A stretch of DNA of 64,000 bases, taken from contig NZ_JADLZT010000006.1 in NCBI RefSeq assembly GCF_015453285.1, forward strand, positions 248,001 through 312,000, written 5' to 3'. The position numbers and the translations under genes are program-made. The notes below the pieces were generated by a model that was given only the letters and a program-made list of their open reading frames with translations, was not told the DNA's origin and did no database searches. This DNA comes from Lysobacter niastensis (lineage in GTDB: Bacteria > Pseudomonadota > Gammaproteobacteria > Xanthomonadales > Xanthomonadaceae). Shown here piece by piece: positions 9,836-54,127 of this stretch (positions are counted from its first letter, which is position 1; every line of letters begins with the position of its first letter).

Positions 9836-9911
9836 GTCCCCATCGTCTAGAGGCCTAGGACATTACCCTTTCACGGTAGCGACCGGGGTTCGAATCCCCG
9901 TGGGGACGCCA
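9836..9911 (+). tRNA. tRNA-Glu (anticodon TTC), island attachment site
   Basis: A 76-nt tRNA. The acceptor stem GTCCCCA pairs with TGGGGAC and is followed by encoded GCCA. The anticodon loop contains CTTTCAC with anticodon TTC. Its 3' 47 nt (from 9865) are repeated at 54043-54089, so the gene was used as an integration target and its 3' half was rebuilt from the incoming element. Confidence 0.96.
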
Positions 9912-9949
9912 ACTAGAACAAGCACTTAGGGCTGCCGAGAGGCGGCCCT
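9865..9949 (+). repeat. attL: 85-bp direct repeat at the island's left end
   Basis: Identical at all 85 positions to 54043-54127; the bases on both sides differ (T/C before, A/T after). It starts in the anticodon arm of tRNA-Glu and runs 38 nt past the CCA end, ending with the GGGCTGCCGAGAGGCGGCCCT hairpin region. The size and position are typical of tyrosine-integrase attachment cores. Confidence 0.93.
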
Positions 9950-9957
9950 AGTTGTTT

Positions 9958-9981
9958 TGCGGTAACGGTGCGGTAACTTCC
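9958..9981 (+). repeat. Repeated GCGGTAAC motifs just inside attL (putative arm sites)
   Basis: Two copies of TGCGGTAAC occur 11 nt apart just inside the left repeat, the second continuing as TTCC. A matching pair lies at 53904-53925 next to the integrase gene. Paired short repeats on both inner sides of an att core are what lambda-type integrases use as arm-binding sites; this role is inferred. Confidence 0.5.
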
Positions 9982-10089
9982 GGTACAAGGAGTGTCGGTT
10001 CCAGCGGTCAGCGAATGTGCGAACACGAGAACCGCAAAGTAGGGTGCAAATGTGCCCAAATGGCAGCTGACCGTCTGCCAGGGTGCCGA

Positions 10090-10494
10090 ATGGACATCGA
10101 AAAAATCCAACGCGCTCTCCAAGCGTTTGCTGATGAGCGGAACTGGGAGCAGTTCCACAACCCAAAGAAACTTGGCTATGGCGTTGGCAGGCGAAGCGGG
10201 TGAACTCTGGAATTGTTCCAGTGGCTATCCCCTGAGGAAGCCGCGTCCGTAAGTGGCAATGCCGACCTACAAAGCAAGGTAGCCGAGGAGCTAGCCGACA
10301 TATCTCTCTATTTGCTGAGGCTCGCTGCGGGGTGGGACATCGAGTACGTGACAGATGCGGGAGAGCCAATTTCGGTGGAGGTGAAGGCAACCACTTCACC
10401 AACGTTCCCTTGCTTTGAGATAGCGGATAACGAACTTCGCGCTGCCACAAAGCTGGGCGACAGATATCACCTCCATCTGGTATCGAATTGTTGA
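10090..10494 (+). pseudogene. Decayed MazG-like/DUF3883 chimera
   Basis: Frame 1 from the ATG at 10090 reads MDIEKIQRALQAFADERNW, the start of a small MazG-like nucleotide pyrophosphohydrolase. An extra A near 10170 shifts the homology into frame 2 (NLAMALAGEAGEL), and a lost base near 10208 returns it to frame 1 (FQWLSPEEAASVS...VAEELADISLYLLRLA). Frame 1 meets a stop at 10201 between the two indels. After LYLLRLA the sequence continues as WDIEYVTDAG...VEVKATT...FEIADNELRAATKLGDRYHLHLV, which resembles the DUF3883 nuclease-like domain. It therefore looks like two gene remnants joined. Sequencing error cannot explain the domain switch. Confidence 0.75.
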
Positions 10495-10715
10495 AGCCAG
10501 AGCTTCGGAAGCTGCAGATTGTTCGAAATCCTTCGAAGGAGTACGAGGGGCGATTCACGCCGATGGTTTACCGCGTGATGGGGTGAGTCGTCTGGGGCGA
10601 ATTCAGGCGTCATAGCAGGCGAAGGTGCTCGGCCAATAGGCTCACGGCCAGAAAGTTGCAACCGTTGTCACATTCGCGCACGATGCCGGAACCAGGGGGC
10701 TGGGGAAAGTGCGGC

Positions 10716-11015
10716 ATGGGCACCATCGAAATTGAGATGGATCGGGGACTGTTTACGCCCGACGTTATCGCGCGCACAGCGCATCGGTATACCGCCGACT
10801 ACTTCGTCGAGGTGAGCGCGGCGGGCGGCAGCATCGTGGTACGCCTGACGCCCAAAGGTCCTTCAGTCGACACCGAGCACCTAGCGCAGCGCTTTTGCAA
10901 TGACGCTTTAGACGATCGCCTACGCGCCGCGGTGGCGGAGCAGACCACCGAGCTGCACACGGCACTGGTGCGGGCTGCACTGGGCGAGGCGCAACCTCGG
11001 GATGCCTCGGCGTGA
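10716..11015 (+). CDS. hxsD: His-Xaa-Ser system protein HxsD
   Basis: About 99 residues from the ATG at 10716, chosen because MGTIEIEMDRGLFTPDVIARTAHRYTADYFVEV matches the HxsD start and a GGGGAAAG precedes it; upstream ATGs at 10683 and 10656 are possible. HxsD is a small family found only with HxsB and HxsC. It may act as a peptide-recognition or accessory subunit for the radical SAM maturases, but no activity has been assigned. The stop overlaps the GTG of hxsB by 4 nt, so it heads a four-gene operon. Confidence 0.85.
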   Translation: MGTIEIEMDRGLFTPDVIARTAHRYTADYFVEVSAAGGSIVVRLTPKGPSVDTEHLAQRFCNDALDDRLRAAVAEQTTELHTALVRAALGEAQPRDASA

Positions 11016-12505
11016 AGTTCCGTTCCGCTGATGCATTCTCGGGCGCGGCCGGCTATCGCCTACTACCGCTACGTTTTCGCCGATTGCCGTGGGATACAGA
11101 ACGGGTATTCGTCAGCTCAGCCGCCGGTGACTGGCTGATCATGGGGCACCGCGAGCTCGAACAAGTTATTGCTGGGACCATTGACCAGAATTCGACGTTA
11201 GGGATGGACCTGCAGGCACGGAACATGATCGCCGCCGACCCGTCGCGGACGACGCTGGCACCACTGCTTTCGCAGATGCGCAGCCGCAAGCAGTACCTGC
11301 AGCAGGGACCTTCCCTCCATATCTTTGTTGTATCGCTGCGCTGCCATCACACATGCAGCTACTGCCAAGTATCGCGAGCAGAATCGACCGAAACCGCCTT
11401 TGATCTCGACGAGACCAACGCCCGGTTGGCAGTGGAACGTTTGTTCGAGTGGCCCTCATCGACTCTGACCGTCGAGTTTCAAGGCGGCGAACCTTTGCTG
11501 CACTTTGCGCGCGTGCGGGCAATTACCGAGCAGATCCAGCAGCGCAATCGCCATGAGGGGCGAACCCTGCGGTTTGTGCTCGCTTCTACGCTTCACGACC
11601 TTAATGATGACCAGCTTGCGTTCTTCCGTGAGCACGACTTTCAGCTGTCGACCTCATTGGATGGCCCGGAGTGGCTGCACAACGCGAACCGGCCCCGGCC
11701 GGAGCGCGACAGTTATGCGCGCACCGTGGCCGGCATCGACCGCGCACGCCGCGCCCTGGGTGACGACGCGGTGTCGGCCCTGACGACGTTAACCCAGCGA
11801 AGCCTCTCGGCTCCGCGCGAGATTGTCGACGAGTATCGACGCCTAGGCTTCCATTCGATCTTCCTGCGCCCGCTCAGTCCCTACGGCTTTGCCAGGAAGA
11901 CGGGGCCCCGCATCGGCTACTCGCTCGCCGATTTCTTTGCGTTCTACCGCGAAGCACTGGAACACATCCTCGCGGTCAACCGTGACGGTTATCCGTTAGA
12001 AGAAGCGTACGCGAGTCTAATGCTGTCGCAGCTGTTCACTCCGTTTAGTCATGGCTACGTCGATCTGCGCTCGCCGACTGGCGCGGGCCTTGGCGCGGTG
12101 GTCTACGACTATGATGGCCAAGCGTACCCCTCGGACGAGGCGCGGATGCTGGCGGCCATGGGTGATCGCTCATTCGCGCTCGGTCATGTAGGTCAATCCG
12201 TTCGAGAGTGGCTGGCTTCACCAGCGATGCGGCGCGTGCTTGATGCTGGCGTCGCCGAGGCGTTGCCCGGCTGCGCAGATTGCGCTTTCGTGCCGCTGTG
12301 CGGAGCCGATCCAATCGACCACTATGCACGCCAGGGCGACACATGCGGGCATCGTCCATCGTCGGACTTCTGTCGCAAGCAACTTGGGTTCTTCGATTTG
12401 CTGCTGGAGCGGACGGAGCGGGCGGATGCCTATGATCGGGCGGTCCTGGAAAGCTGGGCCTTACCGCGGCGCAGCGCAACCCCGTGGCAGATAGAGGCTG
12501 CTTGA
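11012..12505 (+). CDS. hxsB: His-Xaa-Ser system radical SAM maturase HxsB
   Basis: A 497-residue radical SAM enzyme starting at GTG 11012. The CX3CX2C motif (Cys111, Cys115, Cys118 in RCHHTCSYC) binds the [4Fe-4S] cluster that cleaves S-adenosylmethionine. A GGEPLL motif follows at about residue 156. The C-terminal region contains a further cysteine set (CADCAFVPLCGADP...CGHRP...FC), like SPASM or twitch auxiliary clusters used in peptide-modifying enzymes. It overlaps hxsD and hxsC, showing translational coupling. The likely substrate is the HxS-repeat protein encoded 3' (hxsA). The chemistry of the modification is not known. Confidence 0.92.
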   Translation: MKFRSADAFSGAAGYRLLPLRFRRLPWDTERVFVSSAAGDWLIMGHRELEQVIAGTIDQNSTLGMDLQARNMIAADPSRTTLAPLLSQMRSRKQYLQQGPSLHIFVVSLRCHHTCSYCQVSRAESTETAFDLDETNARLAVERLFEWPSSTLTVEFQGGEPLLHFARVRAITEQIQQRNRHEGRTLRFVLASTLHDLNDDQLAFFREHDFQLSTSLDGPEWLHNANRPRPERDSYARTVAGIDRARRALGDDAVSALTTLTQRSLSAPREIVDEYRRLGFHSIFLRPLSPYGFARKTGPRIGYSLADFFAFYREALEHILAVNRDGYPLEEAYASLMLSQLFTPFSHGYVDLRSPTGAGLGAVVYDYDGQAYPSDEARMLAAMGDRSFALGHVGQSVREWLASPAMRRVLDAGVAEALPGCADCAFVPLCGADPIDHYARQGDTCGHRPSSDFCRKQLGFFDLLLERTERADAYDRAVLESWALPRRSATPWQIEAA

Positions 12506-13695
12506 TGTTGGCACTTGAGGCCAAGGCGACTTTGGAGGGCTGGGGCCACCGCGGCCAGTACAAAGTCGCCGGATTGCAGGATTTCGCCGCTGCGCGATTG
12601 CCGCTGGAAAGGATGCTGCTGGATCTGCGTCCGAGCAGTGGCGTCCCAACTAGGTCGATGCTGACGAGATTGCCTTGGGCCGGTTTCTTGGTCGATTCGA
12701 AAGAGGCCGCCCCGCCAGGACGCAGATGGCTGCACCTCCACGGTAACGCCCGCACCGTTCAGCCCGGCGACGTGGTCGAGGTCATTCCGAGTCTGGGCAA
12801 GGTTGGGGTGCGCTACCGCCGCGGAAGCAATGGTAATGTCCTGTTCGCAACCGAACGTTGCAACAGCTTCTGCCTGATGTGTTCTCAGCCACCGCGGAAG
12901 ATCGAGGACGATTGGCGAGTCGCTCAACTGTGCGAACTGGCGGAACTTATCGATCCAGACGAGCAGTCGCTGGCGATAAGCGGAGGCGAGCCGACCCTGC
13001 TTGGCGACGGGTTGCCGCAGGTGATCCGGCATTGTTCGGTTGCACTACCCAAGACACATTTGCATGTGCTGTCCAACGGTCGTCTGCTCGGCGAAGATGA
13101 CTATGCCGCCTCGTTCCGTGACCTCCACCCGCATCTGACTTGGGGTGTGCCGTTGTACAGCGACAGCTTCGCAGTTCACGATCATATCGTTCAGAGCGAG
13201 GGCGCTTTCGCCCAGACCGTTCGCGGGTTGTACGCGTTGGAGCGCGCCGCGCAACGTATCGAGGTGCGCGTGGTGCTGGTACGACCGACCGTGGAGCGCC
13301 TCGCGGCGCTGGCGCGCTTCCTTTACCGCAACATGCCCTTTGTGGAGCATGTGGCGCTGATGGGAGTGGAGCCAATCGGCTTCGCCAAGGCCAATCACGC
13401 CGCTGTATGGCTGGATCCTGTCGACATGGCGCAAGCTTTGGGCGAGGCAGTGACCTTCCTGTCCGAGCGCGGCATGCGAGTTTCGCTGTACAACCTGCCG
13501 TTGTGTGTGCTTCCGCGTGATTTGTGGCCTTACGCTAGACAGAGCATATCGGACTGGAAGCAAGACTACCTGGCGGCATGCAGCGGCTGCGCGGTTCAGG
13601 CGCACTGCAGCGGATTCTTCTCTTGGATCAACGACCAGTGGCGCAGTAGGGCTATCGCGCCGATCCCATCATTCGCGGAGGTTCTCGATGAGTAA
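12505..13695 (+). CDS. hxsC: His-Xaa-Ser system radical SAM maturase HxsC
   Basis: About 396 residues from the ATG at 12505, which forms a TGATG overlap with the hxsB stop; an in-frame GTG at 12484 is an alternative. An N-terminal domain of about 110 residues precedes the radical SAM motif CX3CX2C (Cys119, Cys123, Cys126 in RCNSFCLMC). The SAM-binding ISGGEPTLLG sequence follows. The C-terminus has a CSGCAVQAHCSGFF cysteine cluster. Two different radical SAM enzymes in a single operon with one substrate is the defining layout of the Hxs system. Its stop overlaps the hxsA start by 8 nt. Confidence 0.92.
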   Translation: MLALEAKATLEGWGHRGQYKVAGLQDFAAARLPLERMLLDLRPSSGVPTRSMLTRLPWAGFLVDSKEAAPPGRRWLHLHGNARTVQPGDVVEVIPSLGKVGVRYRRGSNGNVLFATERCNSFCLMCSQPPRKIEDDWRVAQLCELAELIDPDEQSLAISGGEPTLLGDGLPQVIRHCSVALPKTHLHVLSNGRLLGEDDYAASFRDLHPHLTWGVPLYSDSFAVHDHIVQSEGAFAQTVRGLYALERAAQRIEVRVVLVRPTVERLAALARFLYRNMPFVEHVALMGVEPIGFAKANHAAVWLDPVDMAQALGEAVTFLSERGMRVSLYNLPLCVLPRDLWPYARQSISDWKQDYLAACSGCAVQAHCSGFFSWINDQWRSRAIAPIPSFAEVLDE

Positions 13696-14284
13696 GGCAT
13701 TGACGCTTGCGACGGCTACGCTGGGTTCGCTTCAGCCTGGTCATCAGGATCACGTCGTCGGCTGGCAGGCGCACTTGCTGACGATGAGTCAGGATGATGC
13801 TCGTTTCGCGGTGACGCTGACGGCGCCGCTGAACCTGGATAGGCATAACATGTATGCGGGTCACCGTTCTCACAGCTCACACAGGTCGCATAGTAGCCAC
13901 AGCTCCCACTATTCGGGCAGTGGCGGCTATAGCGCCCCGGCCTATACGCCGCCGCCACCGCCTTCACCGCGGCCGGCCTCGTCGTCTTACGTTCCGCTGT
14001 CGCGCGGCTCCTCGCCTTCATCTGCCGATCCGTTTTCACCTTCTGCTGCATCGGCGCGCAACAGTCAGTCGCCACGTGCCAGCCAAGATCAATTGCAGTT
14101 GATGATCATGCGCGTGCAGGCGGCACTGTTTGCACGTGGTTACGACCCTGGTGGTATTGACGGTGCACTCGGCCCCCAGACTCGAATGGCACTCGAGCTG
14201 TTCCAGAGCCGGCATGGCATGCCGGTGACGGGCACAATGACAACGGACACGCTTAATGCGCTGGGCATATCTCTGTCGCCGTAA
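13688..14284 (+). CDS. hxsA: His-Xaa-Ser repeat protein HxsA (presumed substrate)
   Basis: A 198-residue protein whose ATG lies inside the hxsC end. Residues 1-55 form a leader-like region ending MYAG. Residues 59-76 read HRSHSSHRSHSSHSSHYS: six tandem His-Xaa-Ser triplets, the proposed modification sites. A Pro/Ser-rich linker follows (about residues 80-135). Residues 140-195 form a peptidoglycan-binding 1 domain (IMRVQAALFARGYDPGGIDGALGPQTRMALELFQ). This combination suggests a modified peptide tethered to cell wall, which is inferred. No classical signal peptide is obvious, so how it would leave the cytosol is unclear. Confidence 0.92.
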   Translation: MSKALTLATATLGSLQPGHQDHVVGWQAHLLTMSQDDARFAVTLTAPLNLDRHNMYAGHRSHSSHRSHSSHSSHYSGSGGYSAPAYTPPPPPSPRPASSSYVPLSRGSSPSSADPFSPSAASARNSQSPRASQDQLQLMIMRVQAALFARGYDPGGIDGALGPQTRMALELFQSRHGMPVTGTMTTDTLNALGISLSP

Positions 14285-14396
14285 CAGAGCGACAAGGCGG
14301 CACTTACACGCTGGACGCCTTATGAGCGTAGTTCTGGTCAGTTCGCCGAAGGCGAGGCCGCTTTCGGCGCGCCCTCTCTAGCACTAGGGGTCTCGC

Positions 14397-14897
14397 GTGA
14401 AGCCGAAACCACGGATTCCGTTAAAGCAGCTTCGACAGCATCAAGATAGGTACAGTGAATACACTGATTCAGAATTTGACCACCTGCGTGGCGTGGCGCA
14501 CCTGACTCCCGCACAGCTGTACGAGATCTGCAGGTGGAAGTCCAAGCGCCGGCCGGAACTTGCACTTGGAAACTCGAAGGAACTCGTTAAAGAGATCACC
14601 GCATTTGCCTTCAGCGCGAAGCGCGAGGAATCAAGAATTGGCGCGTTGACCTTGCTTGATGGCGTCAGCTTTCCAACCGCTTCAGTCATCCTACATTTCT
14701 GCGTGAGCAGGAGCTACCCAATCCTGGATTTTCGGGCCCTATGGAGTCTTGGGATCGAGAAGCCAGCAGCATATTCGGCCAGATTCTGGATCGAGTACGT
14801 GGCGTGTTGCCGAAACATGGCAATGGACAACGGACTGTCCGTACGCAGCCTCGACAAAGCGCTATGGCAGTACTCGCGCGAGCACCAAAAGACATAG
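14397..14897 (+). CDS. Hypothetical protein with HhH-like segment
   Basis: A 166-residue protein starting at GTG 14397. The middle part (LTLLDGVSFPTASVILHFCVSRSYPILDFRALWSLGI) resembles the helix-hairpin-helix region of base-excision DNA glycosylase-like proteins, but the catalytic Lys/Asp arrangement of that superfamily cannot be confirmed. The N-terminal 60 residues are highly charged. Codon use is less GC-biased than in the core genes. It is a lone gene between hxsA and a decayed channel; no function is claimed. Confidence 0.65.
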   Translation: MKPKPRIPLKQLRQHQDRYSEYTDSEFDHLRGVAHLTPAQLYEICRWKSKRRPELALGNSKELVKEITAFAFSAKREESRIGALTLLDGVSFPTASVILHFCVSRSYPILDFRALWSLGIEKPAAYSARFWIEYVACCRNMAMDNGLSVRSLDKALWQYSREHQKT

Positions 14898-15014
14898 TCG
14901 GAGGTGTTGGCCTCTAGTGGCACAATCTGGGGGGGCTCACCAGGAACGACTGGGATCCAGGCCGGCCGTTAGCGCTGTCTTAGTAGGCCTGGCGTGCAGC
15001 TCGGTACCGCTAAT

Positions 15015-15871
15015 TTATTCGAGCCGACGCAGCTCCTGGTCTCGGCCGGGCGCGCCAGGAGCACAACGGTGCTTGGAGTCGCGCTTGGCGCGAAACGCCT
15101 CCGAAAAGGCGGCGGACAAGATTCCAGTTGGCATTGCGATTAGGCCAATTCCAGACAGCGCAGTGAGAGCGGCGGACAAGCGACCCAATACGGTCACTGG
15201 CACAACGTCGCCGTAGCCGACCGTTGTCAATGTGCTGACCGACCACCAGAGCGCCCTGGGAATGCTGCCAAACGCCTCGGGTGCACGTCGGCTTCTACAG
15301 AGTACAGCGCTGCGGCGGACAACAAAATCATGCACCCCGCGAGGGATACAGAGAACAACAGTTCATGTCGACGCTCATAAACCGAGCGTAAAACCAATTG
15401 CATCGCCGCTGAATAACGGACTAGGCGCGAAAGCGTCAGTAGCCGAAAAATCGGAGTAGACGGAACAAGAAGGACTGAGTCCCCCAGCCCCGAAGTAGGG
15501 AAGGATCGAAGCAAGGTCGAGCAAGGCCATGGGGGTCAGTGCATACCGAATACGCCCCAACACATCTGAGTAGCGCGGATCGGTTCCGCCGCCCAAAGGC
15601 GAAGTCCGTATTCCGTCGCAAAGAATGTGATGAAAGCAAGCTCGAAAGCTGGCCCGATCGCGCCAAGCGAGCTGCTGATCGCAGGCTCCGTCGTGAAGAT
15701 TGCAAAAACAATGGACAGGACAATAACCAAGGCGCTGAGCCTTTGAAACCAGGTCAACTGGTGGGCTTCAGTGCCGTGCAGCACCTTGTGGACCCGCGGC
15801 CGAATGTCATCCGCGTCATCACCCGCGCAGGTTATCGCGTCGACCCCGAGCCCACTATTCATGTCGTTCAT
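15015..15871 (-). pseudogene. Frameshifted voltage-gated potassium channel
   Basis: Four consecutive minus-strand frame segments together make one six-helix ion channel. Segment 15871-15536 carries S1 and S2; 15596-15375 carries S3 (MALLDLASILPYF); 15514-15227 carries an Arg-spaced S4 (FRLLTLSRLVRYSAAMQLVLRSVYERR) and S5; 15335-15015 carries the pore with the K+ selectivity filter TVGYGD and S6. The reading frame alternates 1-2-1-2, so at least three single-base indels separate the pieces. The start overlaps the DUF4236 stop by 4 nt, implying an operon when intact. Either it is a decaying gene or the assembly has local indel errors. Confidence 0.8.
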
Positions 15872-17115
15872 TGGTTGATCGCGTTGTATTGTGCCGGCGA
15901 TGCTTTCATTACCTCCTCGGGCAAGAACGGCGCAATGGCCTTAAAGACGCCCGACTTGCTCATGGCCCTACGAAGATCGAAGCGGGCGATTGCATCAACG
16001 ACGTCAATGCATTCGAGAGCGGAGGGGGAGAGCTCAATCTCAGTCCACTCTTGCCTCGTCGCAATCAACGACAAGAGATACTCATCGGCAATTCGGCCGG
16101 TGGCTTTGTCGCTGCGCTGGGAGTATCCGGATATGACCACCCGCTCAGCCTTGGGGAGTGCTGCGAAAATCTCGCCAACAATTCGAAACACGATGGCATG
16201 AATATGTCGCATGTACAGGCGTTGCACTTGCGTCGGCGACATATCCTTGACTGACAGCTTCATTCCCCGCGCCGGCACGCCCGCCACTTTGTCCGGCATG
16301 TCGCCGATTTCTGGGAGATCGACATCGGCAAAAACGTCCAGGCCACCCGCCTCAACTTCCGCCGAAATAAGAGTTTCCCGTGGCCAAGCGATGTTTTGCA
16401 GCGTTGCCTCAAGATGGAGCTCCATCGCTTTCGTGCCGACGTAGATCTGCTCCTCGATCAACACGCGGCGTGCATGCTCTGCCTGTCTATGGTCGGTCGC
16501 CGCCGACTCCCATTGGGCAACTAAGTCCTCATAATGCCGGTTGATCTGTTGATTCTCCGCGTCGATGCGTTCCCGCGTCCGCTTGAAGAATTTCCCTAAG
16601 AAGCTGGGGGCTTTGGGCTTGGGTTGAACCGGGCGAGGCGATTCAAACTCGCGCCCAATGAAGGCAGGTCGATAATCTGGAGATGGGGTGTCGCGATGGA
16701 GTTCGCCCACTGCTTCGATCTGGGCATTAATCTCATCACACTTAGACTGAATCAACTTGCGTATCGCGTCGCCATGCTGCTGTTTGGCGATGCGGACCAG
16801 GCGCTCGGCAAGCGGCGCTCCAGCCTGGTCCTGGAAAAATACCTCTCCATCATCGCGGACTCCGACTGAAACCGGAAGCGAGATCATCTGAGCCGGTTGT
16901 GCCGCAGAGTGGGAGTGGGGCGTACCGCCTCCAGTTGATAGCTTCTGCCGCATTGACAGTCCTGTTCCGGGAATGCCGACGCTTCCATAGACGCCGCGCT
17001 TGCCGACACTGACAGAGGCACCACGAGGGCCGAAACTGAAACTGGTGCCGCCTCCGCTTAGGTTCATGCGAACTCCGGGCGCAAGCTTGAACGACTTACG
17101 AGAACGAATCCCCAT
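15868..17115 (-). CDS. DUF4236 domain protein
   Basis: About 415 residues from the ATG at 17115 (MGIRSRKSFKLAPGVRMNLS), where DUF4236 begins; the longer frame to 17169 adds 18 doubtful residues. Residues 1-60 hold the domain signature SGGGTSFSFGPRGASVSVGKRGVYGSVGIPGTGLSMR. The remainder is a mainly helical, charged region with a basic segment near FLGKFFKRTRERIDAENQQINRHY. DUF4236 is found fused to many different C-termini in bacteria and phages and has no proven role. Its stop overlaps the K+ channel pseudogene start. Confidence 0.8.
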   Translation of the reverse strand: MGIRSRKSFKLAPGVRMNLSGGGTSFSFGPRGASVSVGKRGVYGSVGIPGTGLSMRQKLSTGGGTPHSHSAAQPAQMISLPVSVGVRDDGEVFFQDQAGAPLAERLVRIAKQQHGDAIRKLIQSKCDEINAQIEAVGELHRDTPSPDYRPAFIGREFESPRPVQPKPKAPSFLGKFFKRTRERIDAENQQINRHYEDLVAQWESAATDHRQAEHARRVLIEEQIYVGTKAMELHLEATLQNIAWPRETLISAEVEAGGLDVFADVDLPEIGDMPDKVAGVPARGMKLSVKDMSPTQVQRLYMRHIHAIVFRIVGEIFAALPKAERVVISGYSQRSDKATGRIADEYLLSLIATRQEWTEIELSPSALECIDVVDAIARFDLRRAMSKSGVFKAIAPFLPEEVMKASPAQYNAINQ

Positions 17116-17209
17116 TACGTCTCCCCAGACGTACAGACCCTCGTGGGCCAATTTGGAAGAGTACCCCAAGGATTGTGTGCTCCCAAGCCCAGTGTGGGTG
17201 GCAAATTGG

Positions 17210-17475
17210 CGGGCTCTGCCGCGAGTACAAGTGCATCACCACCGCTAGGAAAAGCCAGCCTTCGTAGTGCGGATGTAGGTGATGTCGGTGACCCGGACCG
17301 TGTTCGGCGCCGAAGGCGCGAAGTCGCGGTTGAGCACGTTGCCCACCACGCCCAGCGGGGCCGCCACGGTGGCGCGGCTAGTGGCCAAAGCCTGCCTGGG
17401 CGCGTAGGCCCTCGGCCTTCATCAACCGTACCCGGTGCGGCTGCAAGTCTCGCCGGGTCCAGGCGGGCTGGGCGG
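17210..17475 (-). mobile_element. IS3-family transposase remnant
   Basis: On the minus strand one frame reads VVGNVLNRDFAPSAPNTVRV followed by TDITYIRTTKAG, the start of the IS3 OrfB DDE domain with its first Asp. Upstream another frame reads RLMKAEGLRAQAGFGH followed by a stop, and downstream a third reads EGWLFLAVVMHLYSRQ. The piece is thus a short, frameshifted internal fragment without ends or later catalytic residues. It is an inactive relic between the DUF4236 gene and hsp20. Confidence 0.75.
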
Positions 17476-17624
17476 CTCACGTGCTGGTGTCATGCGAGCA
17501 AGGCGGGCGGACGGCCAAGCGCGGTCGTAGTGCGCGCGCAAGCTTGATTCGTTAGAGAGGGGGTGACCATCCGCCGTGGTCATACATCCGATAGACCCGG
17601 CTTGTCGCCGGTATGGCGCCGGTG

Positions 17625-52584: not shown

Positions 52585-53853
52585 TTAGAAGCCGAGTGCA
52601 GGTAGCCTAGCGATTCCGGCCTTAACTTCAGAAGGGAGGAGGGCGGCGTAATGCTTGCGCGTAATGCGACTGTCGCTGTGTCCAAGAGCCTTCGCTACGA
52701 GCTCGATGTCCTTCGTAGCCACTAGCAGAAGCTTTCCGTAGGTCGCGCGCGTGGTCTTAAAAGTCACTTCTTCAAGTTGGGCGGCAAGTACTGCCGTGGC
52801 CATCGGCTTAGCCGCATCGGACCGCGCCCATGGAGCACCACCCTCCCTGACAAATATCGGATCATCTTTTTTGCGATCGGCCGTCAAAGCTTGAAACAGG
52901 GCGACGCCCTCAGGCGTGAGAGGCTGAGTCAGCGTCTTATAGGTTTTGGACTGGCGAATGGTTACGGTTCCATGGGCGGCGTCGAAATCCCGCACGCGCA
53001 TTGTGCAAAGTTCGCCGTAACGGGCACCAGTCATGAGCGCTCCCTGCAGCAGAGTTCGCAAGTCAGTCGGGGCAGCGCCCAGCAGTCGCGCTATTTCGTC
53101 CTTGTCTAGCATGCGCGGCACTGGGTCATCGCCCAGGGCGAAGGGCGACACGTTCCGCCACCAATCCGCCATGTCGTCTGGCAACGCGTCGTGCTGGCGT
53201 GCCCATGTGAGGGCGGCCTTCGCTATCGTGAGAATACGGTTTGCGGTCGCACGCCGACTACGGACCCGCTCAGGGTCGGTCGCGTCGAAGTCTTGGGTCT
53301 TGCCGCGTACGGTCGGAGCCACAGTCGCCATGCTGGCGTGCCACTTCCGCATTGCCTTGGCATCCAGGGCAGTTACCAGTTTGGATCCAATGTCCTTACG
53401 CGCGTGACGCTCCCAAACTTGATTTGACATTTGCGCGGTGGATTTCGGCATCACCCGATTGAAGCGTCCGCCAGGCGTAACCTGGCGCTGCTCCAGGTAG
53501 TCGTCAAAGACTTGATTTAGTGTTAGACCGTCGGAGTAATGACGGGGGAGGGGCTTGCGATCCTCCAATTGCATGGTCGTCGCCAGCTTCACGGCCTGGG
53601 AGTAGGACAGCACGATGGTGCCGTCGGCCTTGATTCCGTCGTCGGGGGTTCCTATTCGCTGCTTTCGATAGGCACCTGCAGCCCGTTGGCGCACGAACCA
53701 TGAAACATCCCGAACGCCTTTGGCGTAGCCGATGGCCGTGCCCGGAACCAACTCGACCCAGTACGGCTCGCGGCGCACATGAAGTCGATTGCGAGCCTCC
53801 GCGCTCGATATCCGCACTCCGCTCTGGCGGCTATTTACGGGCTTTCTAGCCAT
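52585..53853 (-). CDS. Tyrosine recombinase (island integrase)
   Basis: About 422 residues from the ATG at 53853; the frame to 53904 adds 17 residues. An N-terminal arm-binding-like part precedes the SAM-like core-binding domain (about 90-205). The catalytic domain has the first Arg in TGARYGEL (about residue 278), the second-box Arg in KTTRATYGKLL with Lys where His is usual, ALGHSDSRITRKHYAAL with His and the nucleophilic Tyr (about residue 401). It sits 190 nt inside the right repeat and is transcribed away from it, the expected layout for the enzyme that joined the island to tRNA-Glu. Confidence 0.93.
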   Translation of the reverse strand: MARKPVNSRQSGVRISSAEARNRLHVRREPYWVELVPGTAIGYAKGVRDVSWFVRQRAAGAYRKQRIGTPDDGIKADGTIVLSYSQAVKLATTMQLEDRKPLPRHYSDGLTLNQVFDDYLEQRQVTPGGRFNRVMPKSTAQMSNQVWERHARKDIGSKLVTALDAKAMRKWHASMATVAPTVRGKTQDFDATDPERVRSRRATANRILTIAKAALTWARQHDALPDDMADWWRNVSPFALGDDPVPRMLDKDEIARLLGAAPTDLRTLLQGALMTGARYGELCTMRVRDFDAAHGTVTIRQSKTYKTLTQPLTPEGVALFQALTADRKKDDPIFVREGGAPWARSDAAKPMATAVLAAQLEEVTFKTTRATYGKLLLVATKDIELVAKALGHSDSRITRKHYAALLPSEVKAGIARLPALGF

Positions 53854-53903
53854 GGGTGAAATCCTCTGTCTTGCAGTCGCCACCGGCGCGGTCGTTCCCA
53901 ACA

Positions 53904-53925
53904 CTGCGGTAAAGTGCGGTAACTT
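53904..53925 (+). repeat. TGCGGTAA motif pair near integrase start
   Basis: TGCGGTAAA and TGCGGTAACTT recur 11 nt apart, like the pair just inside attL (9958-9981). They are the proposed arm-type sites on the integrase side. Confidence 0.5.
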
Positions 53926-54042: not shown

Positions 54043-54127
54043 ACCCTTTCACGGTAGCGACCGGGGTTCGAATCCCCGTGGGGACGCCAACTAGAACAAG
54101 CACTTAGGGCTGCCGAGAGGCGGCCCT
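54043..54127 (+). repeat. attR: 85-bp direct repeat, 3' fragment of tRNA-Glu
   Basis: The identical partner of 9865-9949. Bases 54043-54089 are the last 47 nt of tRNA-Glu including the encoded CCA region, with no 5' half upstream. It is the original chromosomal 3' end left after integration. Confidence 0.93.

What the first reader, a model, noticed from the sequence alone, without database searches (positions are those of the whole stretch)
10716..14284. Complete His-Xaa-Ser (Hxs) maturation system with two radical SAM enzymes
hxsD-hxsB-hxsC-hxsA are tightly overlapped. HxsA carries six tandem HxS triplets (residues 59-76) followed by a Pro/Ser linker and a peptidoglycan-binding domain. The protein families are known computationally, but the modification made on the repeats and the purpose remain undescribed. 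A system on a mobile island with a wall-binding product deserves biochemical work.
Basis: partly seen in the sequence, partly recalled or inferred. Interest (0 to 1): 0.9.

Follow-up and report, generated by a model that had tools for sequence, protein, structure and literature searches.

The report
Mobile protein-modifying cassette, known Hxs type
A four-gene cassette on a mobile DNA island makes a protein carrying six His-x-Ser triplets, with two radical enzymes that probably modify those triplets; the gene family is already catalogued but I found no account of its chemistry, and the sequence evidence here points to two leading, testable possibilities.

Summary
hxsD-hxsB-hxsC-hxsA lie at 10716-14284 with overlapping ends; HxsA has six HxS triplets (residues 59-76) and a peptidoglycan-binding domain. 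It is a member of a catalogued family (NCBIfam TIGR03976-03979); only HxsD scores below its cut-off. The cassette sits just inside a 44-kb island in tRNA-Glu, bounded by an 85-bp repeat with an integrase at the far end; a diverged second copy lies in another island 101 kb away. In 197 sampled genomes of the family, HxsA and HxsB occur in the same 13. Relatives sit on plasmids and phages in four phyla; no fifth conserved gene was seen.

Added here: HxsA lacks Cys, ruling out thioethers. HxsB lacks the AuxI ligands of sulfatase maturases but keeps AuxII and an invariant Asp beside a lost ligand. Its predicted fold resembles peptide maturases, sulfatase maturases and a cyclophane synthase. Best guess: loss of 2 H per triplet, as a His-Ser cyclophane or formylglycine, before export to the envelope. 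Chemistry and function are inferred, not shown. New member of a known kind.

The parts
9865..9949 (+). attachment site, left end of island 1: 3' 47 bases of tRNA-Glu (9836-9911) plus 38 bases
   Evidence: 85 bases identical at 54043-54127; 47-bp core again at 110657 and at C15:14017
10716..11015 (+). hxsD, small partner protein, predicted beta-alpha-beta-beta-alpha fold
   Evidence: TIGR03976 37 bits, below cut-off 50; AlphaFold pLDDT 87; no confident fold match
11012..12505 (+). hxsB, radical SAM maturase with an N-terminal domain of RRE-like topology and a SPASM-type domain with AuxII ligands only
   Evidence: TIGR03978 560 bits; model pLDDT 84; best fold match CteB 5wgg
12505..13695 (+). 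hxsC, second radical SAM maturase; C119/123/126 and C334/359/362/368 invariant in 14 of 14
   Evidence: TIGR03977 374 bits; alignment A2
13688..14284 (+). hxsA, substrate protein
   Evidence: TIGR03979 173 bits, over cut-off
13862..13915 (+). six HxS triplets (residues 59-76 of HxsA)
   Evidence: 34 distinct arrays of this type, this genome's two included, found by the pattern itself
14111..14263 (+). PG_binding_1 domain of HxsA (residues 142-192)
   Evidence: 2.2e-13
52585..53904 (-). tyrosine integrase at the right end of island 1
   Evidence: PF00589 2.8e-23; phrog_1 integrase
54043..54127 (+). attachment site between island 1 and island 2
   Evidence: 100% identical to 9865-9949

Best explanation
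A mobile, self-contained RiPP-like protein-modification cassette. Step 1: HxsA is made with an N-terminal leader that doubles as an export signal. Step 2: HxsB, through its N-terminal RRE-like domain and helped by HxsD, captures HxsA. Step 3: HxsB abstracts a hydrogen from C-beta of the Ser in each HxS triplet, with Asp375 nearby as a possible base, and the Ser carbon is joined to the His imidazole (C2-Cbeta three-residue cyclophane), costing 2 H per triplet and up to 12 H in all; HxsC completes or extends this. Step 4: the modified protein is exported and held at peptidoglycan by its C-terminal domain, where the rigid imidazole array serves the mobile element's host, most likely by binding something at the cell envelope. 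Shown by sequence: the genes, repeats, domains, candidate cluster ligands, selection, coupling and mobility. Inferred: capture, the bond, export, location and use. My confidence that this is a radical-SAM-modified, envelope-targeted substrate is about 0.75; that the bond is a His-Ser cyclophane, about 0.35.
For: HxsA and HxsB in identical sets of 13 of 197 genomes. Low pairwise dN/dS between the two copies. Between the copies 4 of 6 x residues changed but 0 of 12 His/Ser (p = 0.005; one pair only), although 5 of 6 Ser codons differ. No Cys in HxsA, so no thioether. HxsB fold list: CteB, anaerobic sulfatase maturase, ChlB, TigE and SuiB lead; a reference title in PMC12636437 calls ChlB a multiple cyclophane synthase. 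HxsB lacks AuxI ligands, as does the one GrrM/OscB-family enzyme compared. Precedents in a review (PMC11002830, passages): HaaB C2(His)-Cbeta(Ala), YhhB C2(His)-Cbeta(Arg), MscB C4(Phe)-Cbeta(Ser), in a class whose links join residues i and i+2. Model topology beta3-alpha3 at HxsB residues 20-92. Export-like N termini, by eye, in most relatives.
Against: By family score HxsB is closer to PapB (78 bits), QhpD (73) and sulfatase maturases (63.5) than to cyclophane families (AmcB 52, YhhB 48, GrrM/OscB 48, FxsB 38, XyeB 35); the SCIFF thioether maturase is at 49, and all are far below their cut-offs. The one GrrM-family sequence lacks HxsB's Asp, so the Asp points to sulfatase-maturase chemistry instead. 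A search of the PDB with the HxsB N-terminus alone found no RRE. The window's HxsA has the weakest hydrophobic N-terminus of the 13 compared (1.63), and the 47-residue HxsA of L008 shows no export-like N-terminus by eye. Two radical SAM enzymes are not explained by one bond type.
Confidence: 0.4

Rival explanations
1. Poly-formylglycine: HxsB oxidises the Ser of each HxS to formylglycine as sulfatase maturases do, giving an array of aldehydes that could react with amines of peptidoglycan or of an incoming target.
For: Asp375 is invariant in 26 of 26 HxsB and aligns with the Asp that follows the third AuxI Cys in 6 of 6 sulfatase maturases, five of them from one genome. In anSMEcpe that Cys is C276 (PMC5715301); that the next residue is the catalytic base is recalled, and a search for it found no passage. 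Sulfatase-maturase structures rank directly after CteB. The substrate residue is Ser.
Against: HxsB lacks the AuxI ligands that sulfatase maturases keep; 63.5 bits against a cut-off of 349. It gives no role to the invariant His or to HxsC.
Confidence: 0.25
2. Another radical change (epimerisation, hydroxylation, aminomalonate, or two different changes by HxsB and HxsC) on His, x or Ser.
For: Two different radical SAM enzymes go together: HxsB in 60 and HxsC in 60 of 61 loci. Epimerase EpeE appears in the HxsB fold list, well below the leaders.
Against: None specific; epimerisation would not obviously need His and Ser at every triplet.
Confidence: 0.3
3. Function: an envelope metal binder or buffer, comparable to Sec-exported modified copper buffers.
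For: Six His in 18 residues; export-like N termini; bufferins are a precedent for modified, Sec-exported proteins (PMC12452194, passages). The islands carry an NRAMP gene and P-type ATPases.
Against: No metal gene turned up as a conserved neighbour of hxs; metal genes are common island cargo. No test was done.
Confidence: 0.3
4. Function: an envelope guard or competition factor of mobile elements (exclusion of phages or other elements, or action on rival walls).
For: Found on phage LE1, plasmids, viral contigs and this island; neighbours in some plasmids are toxin-antitoxin or nuclease genes; the product bears an envelope domain.
Against: No PADLOC family beyond weak radical SAM matches to viperins. 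No experiment.
Confidence: 0.2

Closest known systems
His-Xaa-Ser (Hxs) system, NCBIfam TIGR03976/03977/03978/03979
   Same: All four genes, HxS array, PG-binding tail
   Different: HxsD is below its cut-off; two diverged copies lie in neighbouring tRNA-Glu islands of one genome
HxsA2/A3/A4 short HxS repeat proteins (NF038296, NF038309, NF038313)
   Same: HxS array after an N-terminal leader. Of 8 relatives scanned, 3 were over the HxsA2 cut-off, 1 (long) over HxsA, 4 below every cut-off
   Different: Array at or near the C-terminus in the short forms seen, no PG-binding domain there
Three-residue cyclophane enzymes (GrrM/OscB, FxsB, XyeB, YhhB, HaaB) and the cyclophane synthase ChlB
   Same: Triplet substrate logic; no AuxI Cys in the one GrrM/OscB enzyme compared; ChlB in the fold list
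   Different: Sequence families far apart (35-48 bits against cut-offs 310-450); HxsB has an extra N-terminal domain and an invariant Asp absent from that GrrM/OscB enzyme
Anaerobic sulfatase-maturating enzyme
   Same: Fold, AuxII ligands, Asp after the lost AuxI Cys
   Different: AuxI ligands missing; extra N-terminal domain; below the family cut-off
CteB (SCIFF maturase, 5wgg)
   Same: Best sequence and fold match, aligned over 479 columns
   Different: CteB forms thioethers; HxsA has no Cys

Membership tests
Hxs system | HxsA with tandem HxS, over TIGR03979 cut-off | tested here: met
   173 bits, cut-off 121.65
Hxs system | HxsB and HxsC over cut-offs, with CX3CX2C | tested here: met
   560/370 and 374/268 bits; Cys positions
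Hxs system | HxsD over TIGR03976 cut-off | tested here: inconclusive
   37 bits, cut-off 50; same place and alignable with 27 relatives
Hxs system | radical SAM modification of the HxS repeats | not testable with these tools
   needs mass spectrometry
Three-residue cyclophane-forming enzymes | sequence over a family cut-off (GrrM/OscB, FxsB, XyeB, YhhB) | tested here: not met
   48, 38, 35 and 48 bits against 310, 370, 450 and 445
Three-residue cyclophane-forming enzymes | aromatic residue i joined to C-beta of i+2 | not testable with these tools
   the HxS motif fits; the bond is not shown
Anaerobic sulfatase maturase | over TIGR03942 cut-off | tested here: not met
   63.5 bits, cut-off 349.45
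Anaerobic sulfatase maturase | AuxI and AuxII cluster ligands | tested here: not met
   AuxII Cys in 26 of 26. AuxI: third Cys is Ser374 in 26 of 26; fourth position is Pro in 24, V or I in 2; no Cys at the first two in the 7 HxsB rows looked at
Genomic island in a tRNA gene | att repeats, integrase next to one, different flank in relatives | tested here: met
RiPP recognition element in HxsB | beta3-alpha3 winged-helix domain before the radical SAM core (definition recalled) | tested here: inconclusive
   model topology E-E-E-H-H-H; near full-length fold match to CteB; no sequence match of the N-terminus alone
Bufferin-type exported RiPP | MNIO enzyme and partner | tested here: not met
   the operon has radical SAM enzymes instead

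The most novel reading that the evidence does not exclude
Each HxS triplet becomes either a His-Ser C-C ring, giving a chain of six contiguous three-residue cyclophanes, or a formylglycine, giving a poly-aldehyde; the finished array is exported to the cell wall as an envelope guard carried by phages, plasmids and islands. HxsB would be an AuxI-less radical SAM enzyme combining sulfatase-maturase catalysis with RRE-guided substrate capture.
Probability: 0.2. Interest if true: 0.85.

Novelty: new member of a known kind. Interest (0 to 1): 0.45.

Why it matters
The Hxs system is named in databases and was identified by Haft and Basu (as cited in PMC9062424), but I found no description of its chemistry or purpose in the held library. 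It is widespread on mobile elements: an HxsB relative is in 411 plasmid records, 317 of them Klebsiella. The cluster-ligand and Asp pattern of HxsB turns the open question into a few mass and reactivity tests. A repeated His-Ser cyclophane or formylglycine protein held at the wall would, as far as I know, be new protein chemistry.

Tried and rejected
Thioether or sactipeptide chemistry: rejected, since HxsA has no Cys. HxsD as an RRE: not supported; the model is beta-alpha-beta-beta-alpha and the best PDB matches are weak ferredoxin-like or Pcc1-like folds (E 0.05 or worse). A fifth conserved gene (protease, transporter, immunity): none found. In 27 loci, four of them only 4.4 kb long, the clusters after B (27), C (26), D (24) and A (20) were, by eye, antisense or out-of-frame shadows of the hxs genes or families in at most 3 loci. 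In 61 loci, some of them the same region fetched twice: B 60, C 60, D 46 (plus a separate cluster of 7), long-form A 38, and by eye no other true neighbour family in more than 5. Integrase near relatives: 3 of 27 loci within the held flanks, with a narrow home-made profile; tRNA near relatives: 4 of 25. Known defence system: no PADLOC family beyond weak viperin-type matches. Sigma-70 promoter in 10300-14500: none found by a simple scan that expects 1 by chance. E. coli genomes: no match by blastn with the hxsC gene. A Cu-amine-oxidase-like tail in the Calothrix HxsA, suspected by eye, was not confirmed by Pfam.
Full report
OBSERVATION. HxsA has 198 residues, no Cys, six contiguous HxS triplets at 59-76 (HRS HSS HRS HSS HSS HYS), a Pro/Ser-rich linker, and PG_binding_1 at 142-192. 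NCBIfam gives HxsB 560 bits (cut-off 370), HxsC 374 (268), HxsA 173 (122) and HxsD 37 (50), the last below its cut-off.

IS IT REAL AND ACTIVE? The genome holds a second hxsDBCA at window coordinates 112284-115846 (L003:8284-11846), inside a 7.3-kb block 85% identical to window 10328-17616. Between the two copies dN/dS is 0.06 (B), 0.10 (C), 0.15 (A) and 0.30 (D). Within the 18-residue array 4 of 6 x residues changed (R/S swaps) and 0 of 12 His/Ser, p = 0.005 from this one pair, although 5 of 6 Ser codons differ. In 197 genomes sampled from the bacterial family, HxsB (E <= 1e-60) and HxsA (over cut-off) occur in the same 13, this genome included; two further HxsA matches, below the cut-off, are in genomes without HxsB at that threshold. 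Controls: at these thresholds 0 of 14 control genomes ring for either family; at E <= 0.001 HxsB rings in 14 of 14 and HxsA in 5 of 14, none over a cut-off. Substrate and maturase thus come and go together.

WHERE IT SITS. The 3' 47 bases of tRNA-Glu (9865-9911; 85 bases with the flank for the first pair) recur exactly at 54043 and 110657 on the same contig and at C15:14017. Tyrosine integrases lie just before the repeats at 54043 and 110657 (52585-53904 and 109274-110506) and before that on C15 (93% identical to the first). hxsD starts 0.8 kb after the repeat in island 1 and 1.6 kb after it in island 3. Islands 1 and 2 are bounded on both sides; of island 3 only the left end is on this contig. 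All 12 genomes of the genus, this one included, have the tRNA-Glu locus. I compared 10 of their 12 downstream flanks, this genome's included: 7 share one flank, 2 (one of them G846, which has hxs) share another, and the window's matches neither beyond about 50 bases. The common flank has its best counterpart in this genome on another contig (C9, 77% identity). In the 197-genome sample 8 genomes are of the same genus and 2 have hxs, one being this genome.

SPREAD. HxsB at E <= 1e-60, this genome counted each time: 5 of 369 genomes sampled from the class, 15 of 398 from the phylum, 13 of 197 from the family. Plasmids: 411 records, all under 60% identity, 317 of them Klebsiella. Phage records: 2, one a Leptospira phage. 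Viral contigs: 13 by HxsB and 22 by HxsC, partly the same contigs; of the 22, L063-L067 are weak and showed no HxS protein, nor did L047. Plasmid hosts include Pseudomonadota, Cyanobacteriota, Bacteroidota and Spirochaetota. No fifth gene was seen to be conserved, so export and any trimming would have to use host machinery.

HxsA ACROSS RELATIVES. Two forms occur. One has a PG-binding tail, as here. The other is short, with the array at or near the C-terminus. N termini look export-like in most, by eye; the 47-residue HxsA of L008 is an exception. Best 9-residue hydropathy in 13 proteins that I picked: 1.63 in the window (the lowest), 2.26 in the second copy, 1.89-2.74 in the other 11. Export of the window's protein is therefore plausible but not established. 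Arrays of four or more triplets found by pattern had 4 to 7 triplets in 34 distinct cases, with x mostly Ser (93), Arg (70), Tyr (17) or Ala (16), and Tyr the commonest last x (16 of 34) (the pattern itself fixes His and Ser, so those are not evidence).

THE ENZYMES. HxsB: the predicted model (pLDDT 84) has three strands and three helices (residues 20-92) before the radical SAM core, the topology I recall for RiPP recognition elements. The top fold match is CteB over 479 columns; next come sulfatase maturases, ChlB, TigE and SuiB. By sequence the PDB order is CteB, sulfatase maturase, ChlB, TigE. The N-terminus alone found nothing credible, so the RRE assignment is an inference. Cluster ligands: in anSMEcpe AuxI is C255, C261, C276, C330 and AuxII C317, C320, C326, C348 (PMC5715301, passages). 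HxsB has the AuxII equivalents C421, C424, C430, C454 in 26 of 26, but Ser374 where C276 would be in 26 of 26, and Pro (24) or V/I (2) at the fourth AuxI position; the first two AuxI positions hold no Cys in the 7 HxsB rows looked at. The residue after Ser374, Asp375, is invariant (26 of 26) and matches the Asp of 6 of 6 sulfatase maturases, five of them from one genome; the one GrrM/OscB-family enzyme compared lacks both the AuxI Cys and the Asp. That this Asp is the catalytic base in anSMEcpe is recalled; a search did not find it in the held library. HxsC: seven Cys invariant in 14 of 14, suggesting the radical SAM cluster and one auxiliary cluster. HxsD: predicted beta-alpha-beta-beta-alpha (pLDDT 87), no confident fold match; by this model it is not the RRE.

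MECHANISM. Without Cys in the substrate, a thioether is impossible. Hydrogen abstraction at Ser C-beta fits the sulfatase-maturase-like features. The radical could go on to formylglycine, or be captured by the His two residues before. The second is precedented piecewise: C2(His)-Cbeta(Ala) by HaaB, C2(His)-Cbeta(Arg) by YhhB, and C4(Phe)-Cbeta(Ser) by MscB, in a class of i to i+2 links (PMC11002830, passages). ChlB, in HxsB's fold list, is titled a multiple cyclophane synthase in a reference seen in PMC12636437. The cyclophane uses both invariant residues and so is preferred (0.35) over formylglycine (0.25), but the family scores and the Asp speak for the latter; other changes hold the rest. 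Both give -2 H per triplet, so mass alone will not decide.

KNOWN OR NEW. It is a member of the catalogued Hxs family and, by sequence, neither a member of the cyclophane-synthase families scanned nor of the sulfatase-maturase family. Three papers of the held library hold 'His-Xaa-Ser'; the passages read list or mention it as a putative system. The original report (Haft and Basu, cited in PMC9062424) and the triceptide paper could not be read here; I know of them only through what others cite and from recall. Papers in closed journals may already report the chemistry.

Noticed in passing
window 9865, 54043, 110657 (L003:6657) and G000:C15:14017: Four exact copies of the 47-base tRNA-Glu end and three related integrases: tandem islands, with P-type ATPases, NRAMP and a molybdopterin oxidoreductase among the cargo.
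   Followed up: partly
window 15015-15871 (-): An ion-channel gene whose reading frame is broken; the counterpart in the second copy's island (L003:12584-13441) is open over 285 residues.
   Followed up: partly
window 9952-10494 (+): A stretch with a NOV_C match (4.8e-9) and a sub-threshold MazG-like match, between tRNA-Glu and hxsD, without one continuous reading frame.
   Followed up: no
window 14111-14263 versus L003: The PG-binding part of hxsA has dS 0.29 between the copies, against 1.1-1.2 in hxsB/hxsC: a sign of gene conversion or mosaic exchange.
   Followed up: no
window 14397-17169: The duplicated block also carries an unknown 166-aa gene (92% identical, a 37-residue match to phrog_24538) and a DUF4236 gene (91% identical) next to hxs in both copies.
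   Followed up: partly
L118:7949-8485, L121:7633-8349, L014:1-80: A thermonuclease-family gene lies near hxs in three plasmids of different genera (in L014 about 7.5 kb away); too few to call an association.
   Followed up: no
L117:3818-4579: Hymenobacter HxsA carries two separate HxS arrays in one protein.
   Followed up: no
L012 (Klebsiella plasmid): hxs lies between insertion sequences near resistance cassettes; 317 Klebsiella plasmid records match HxsB.
   Followed up: no
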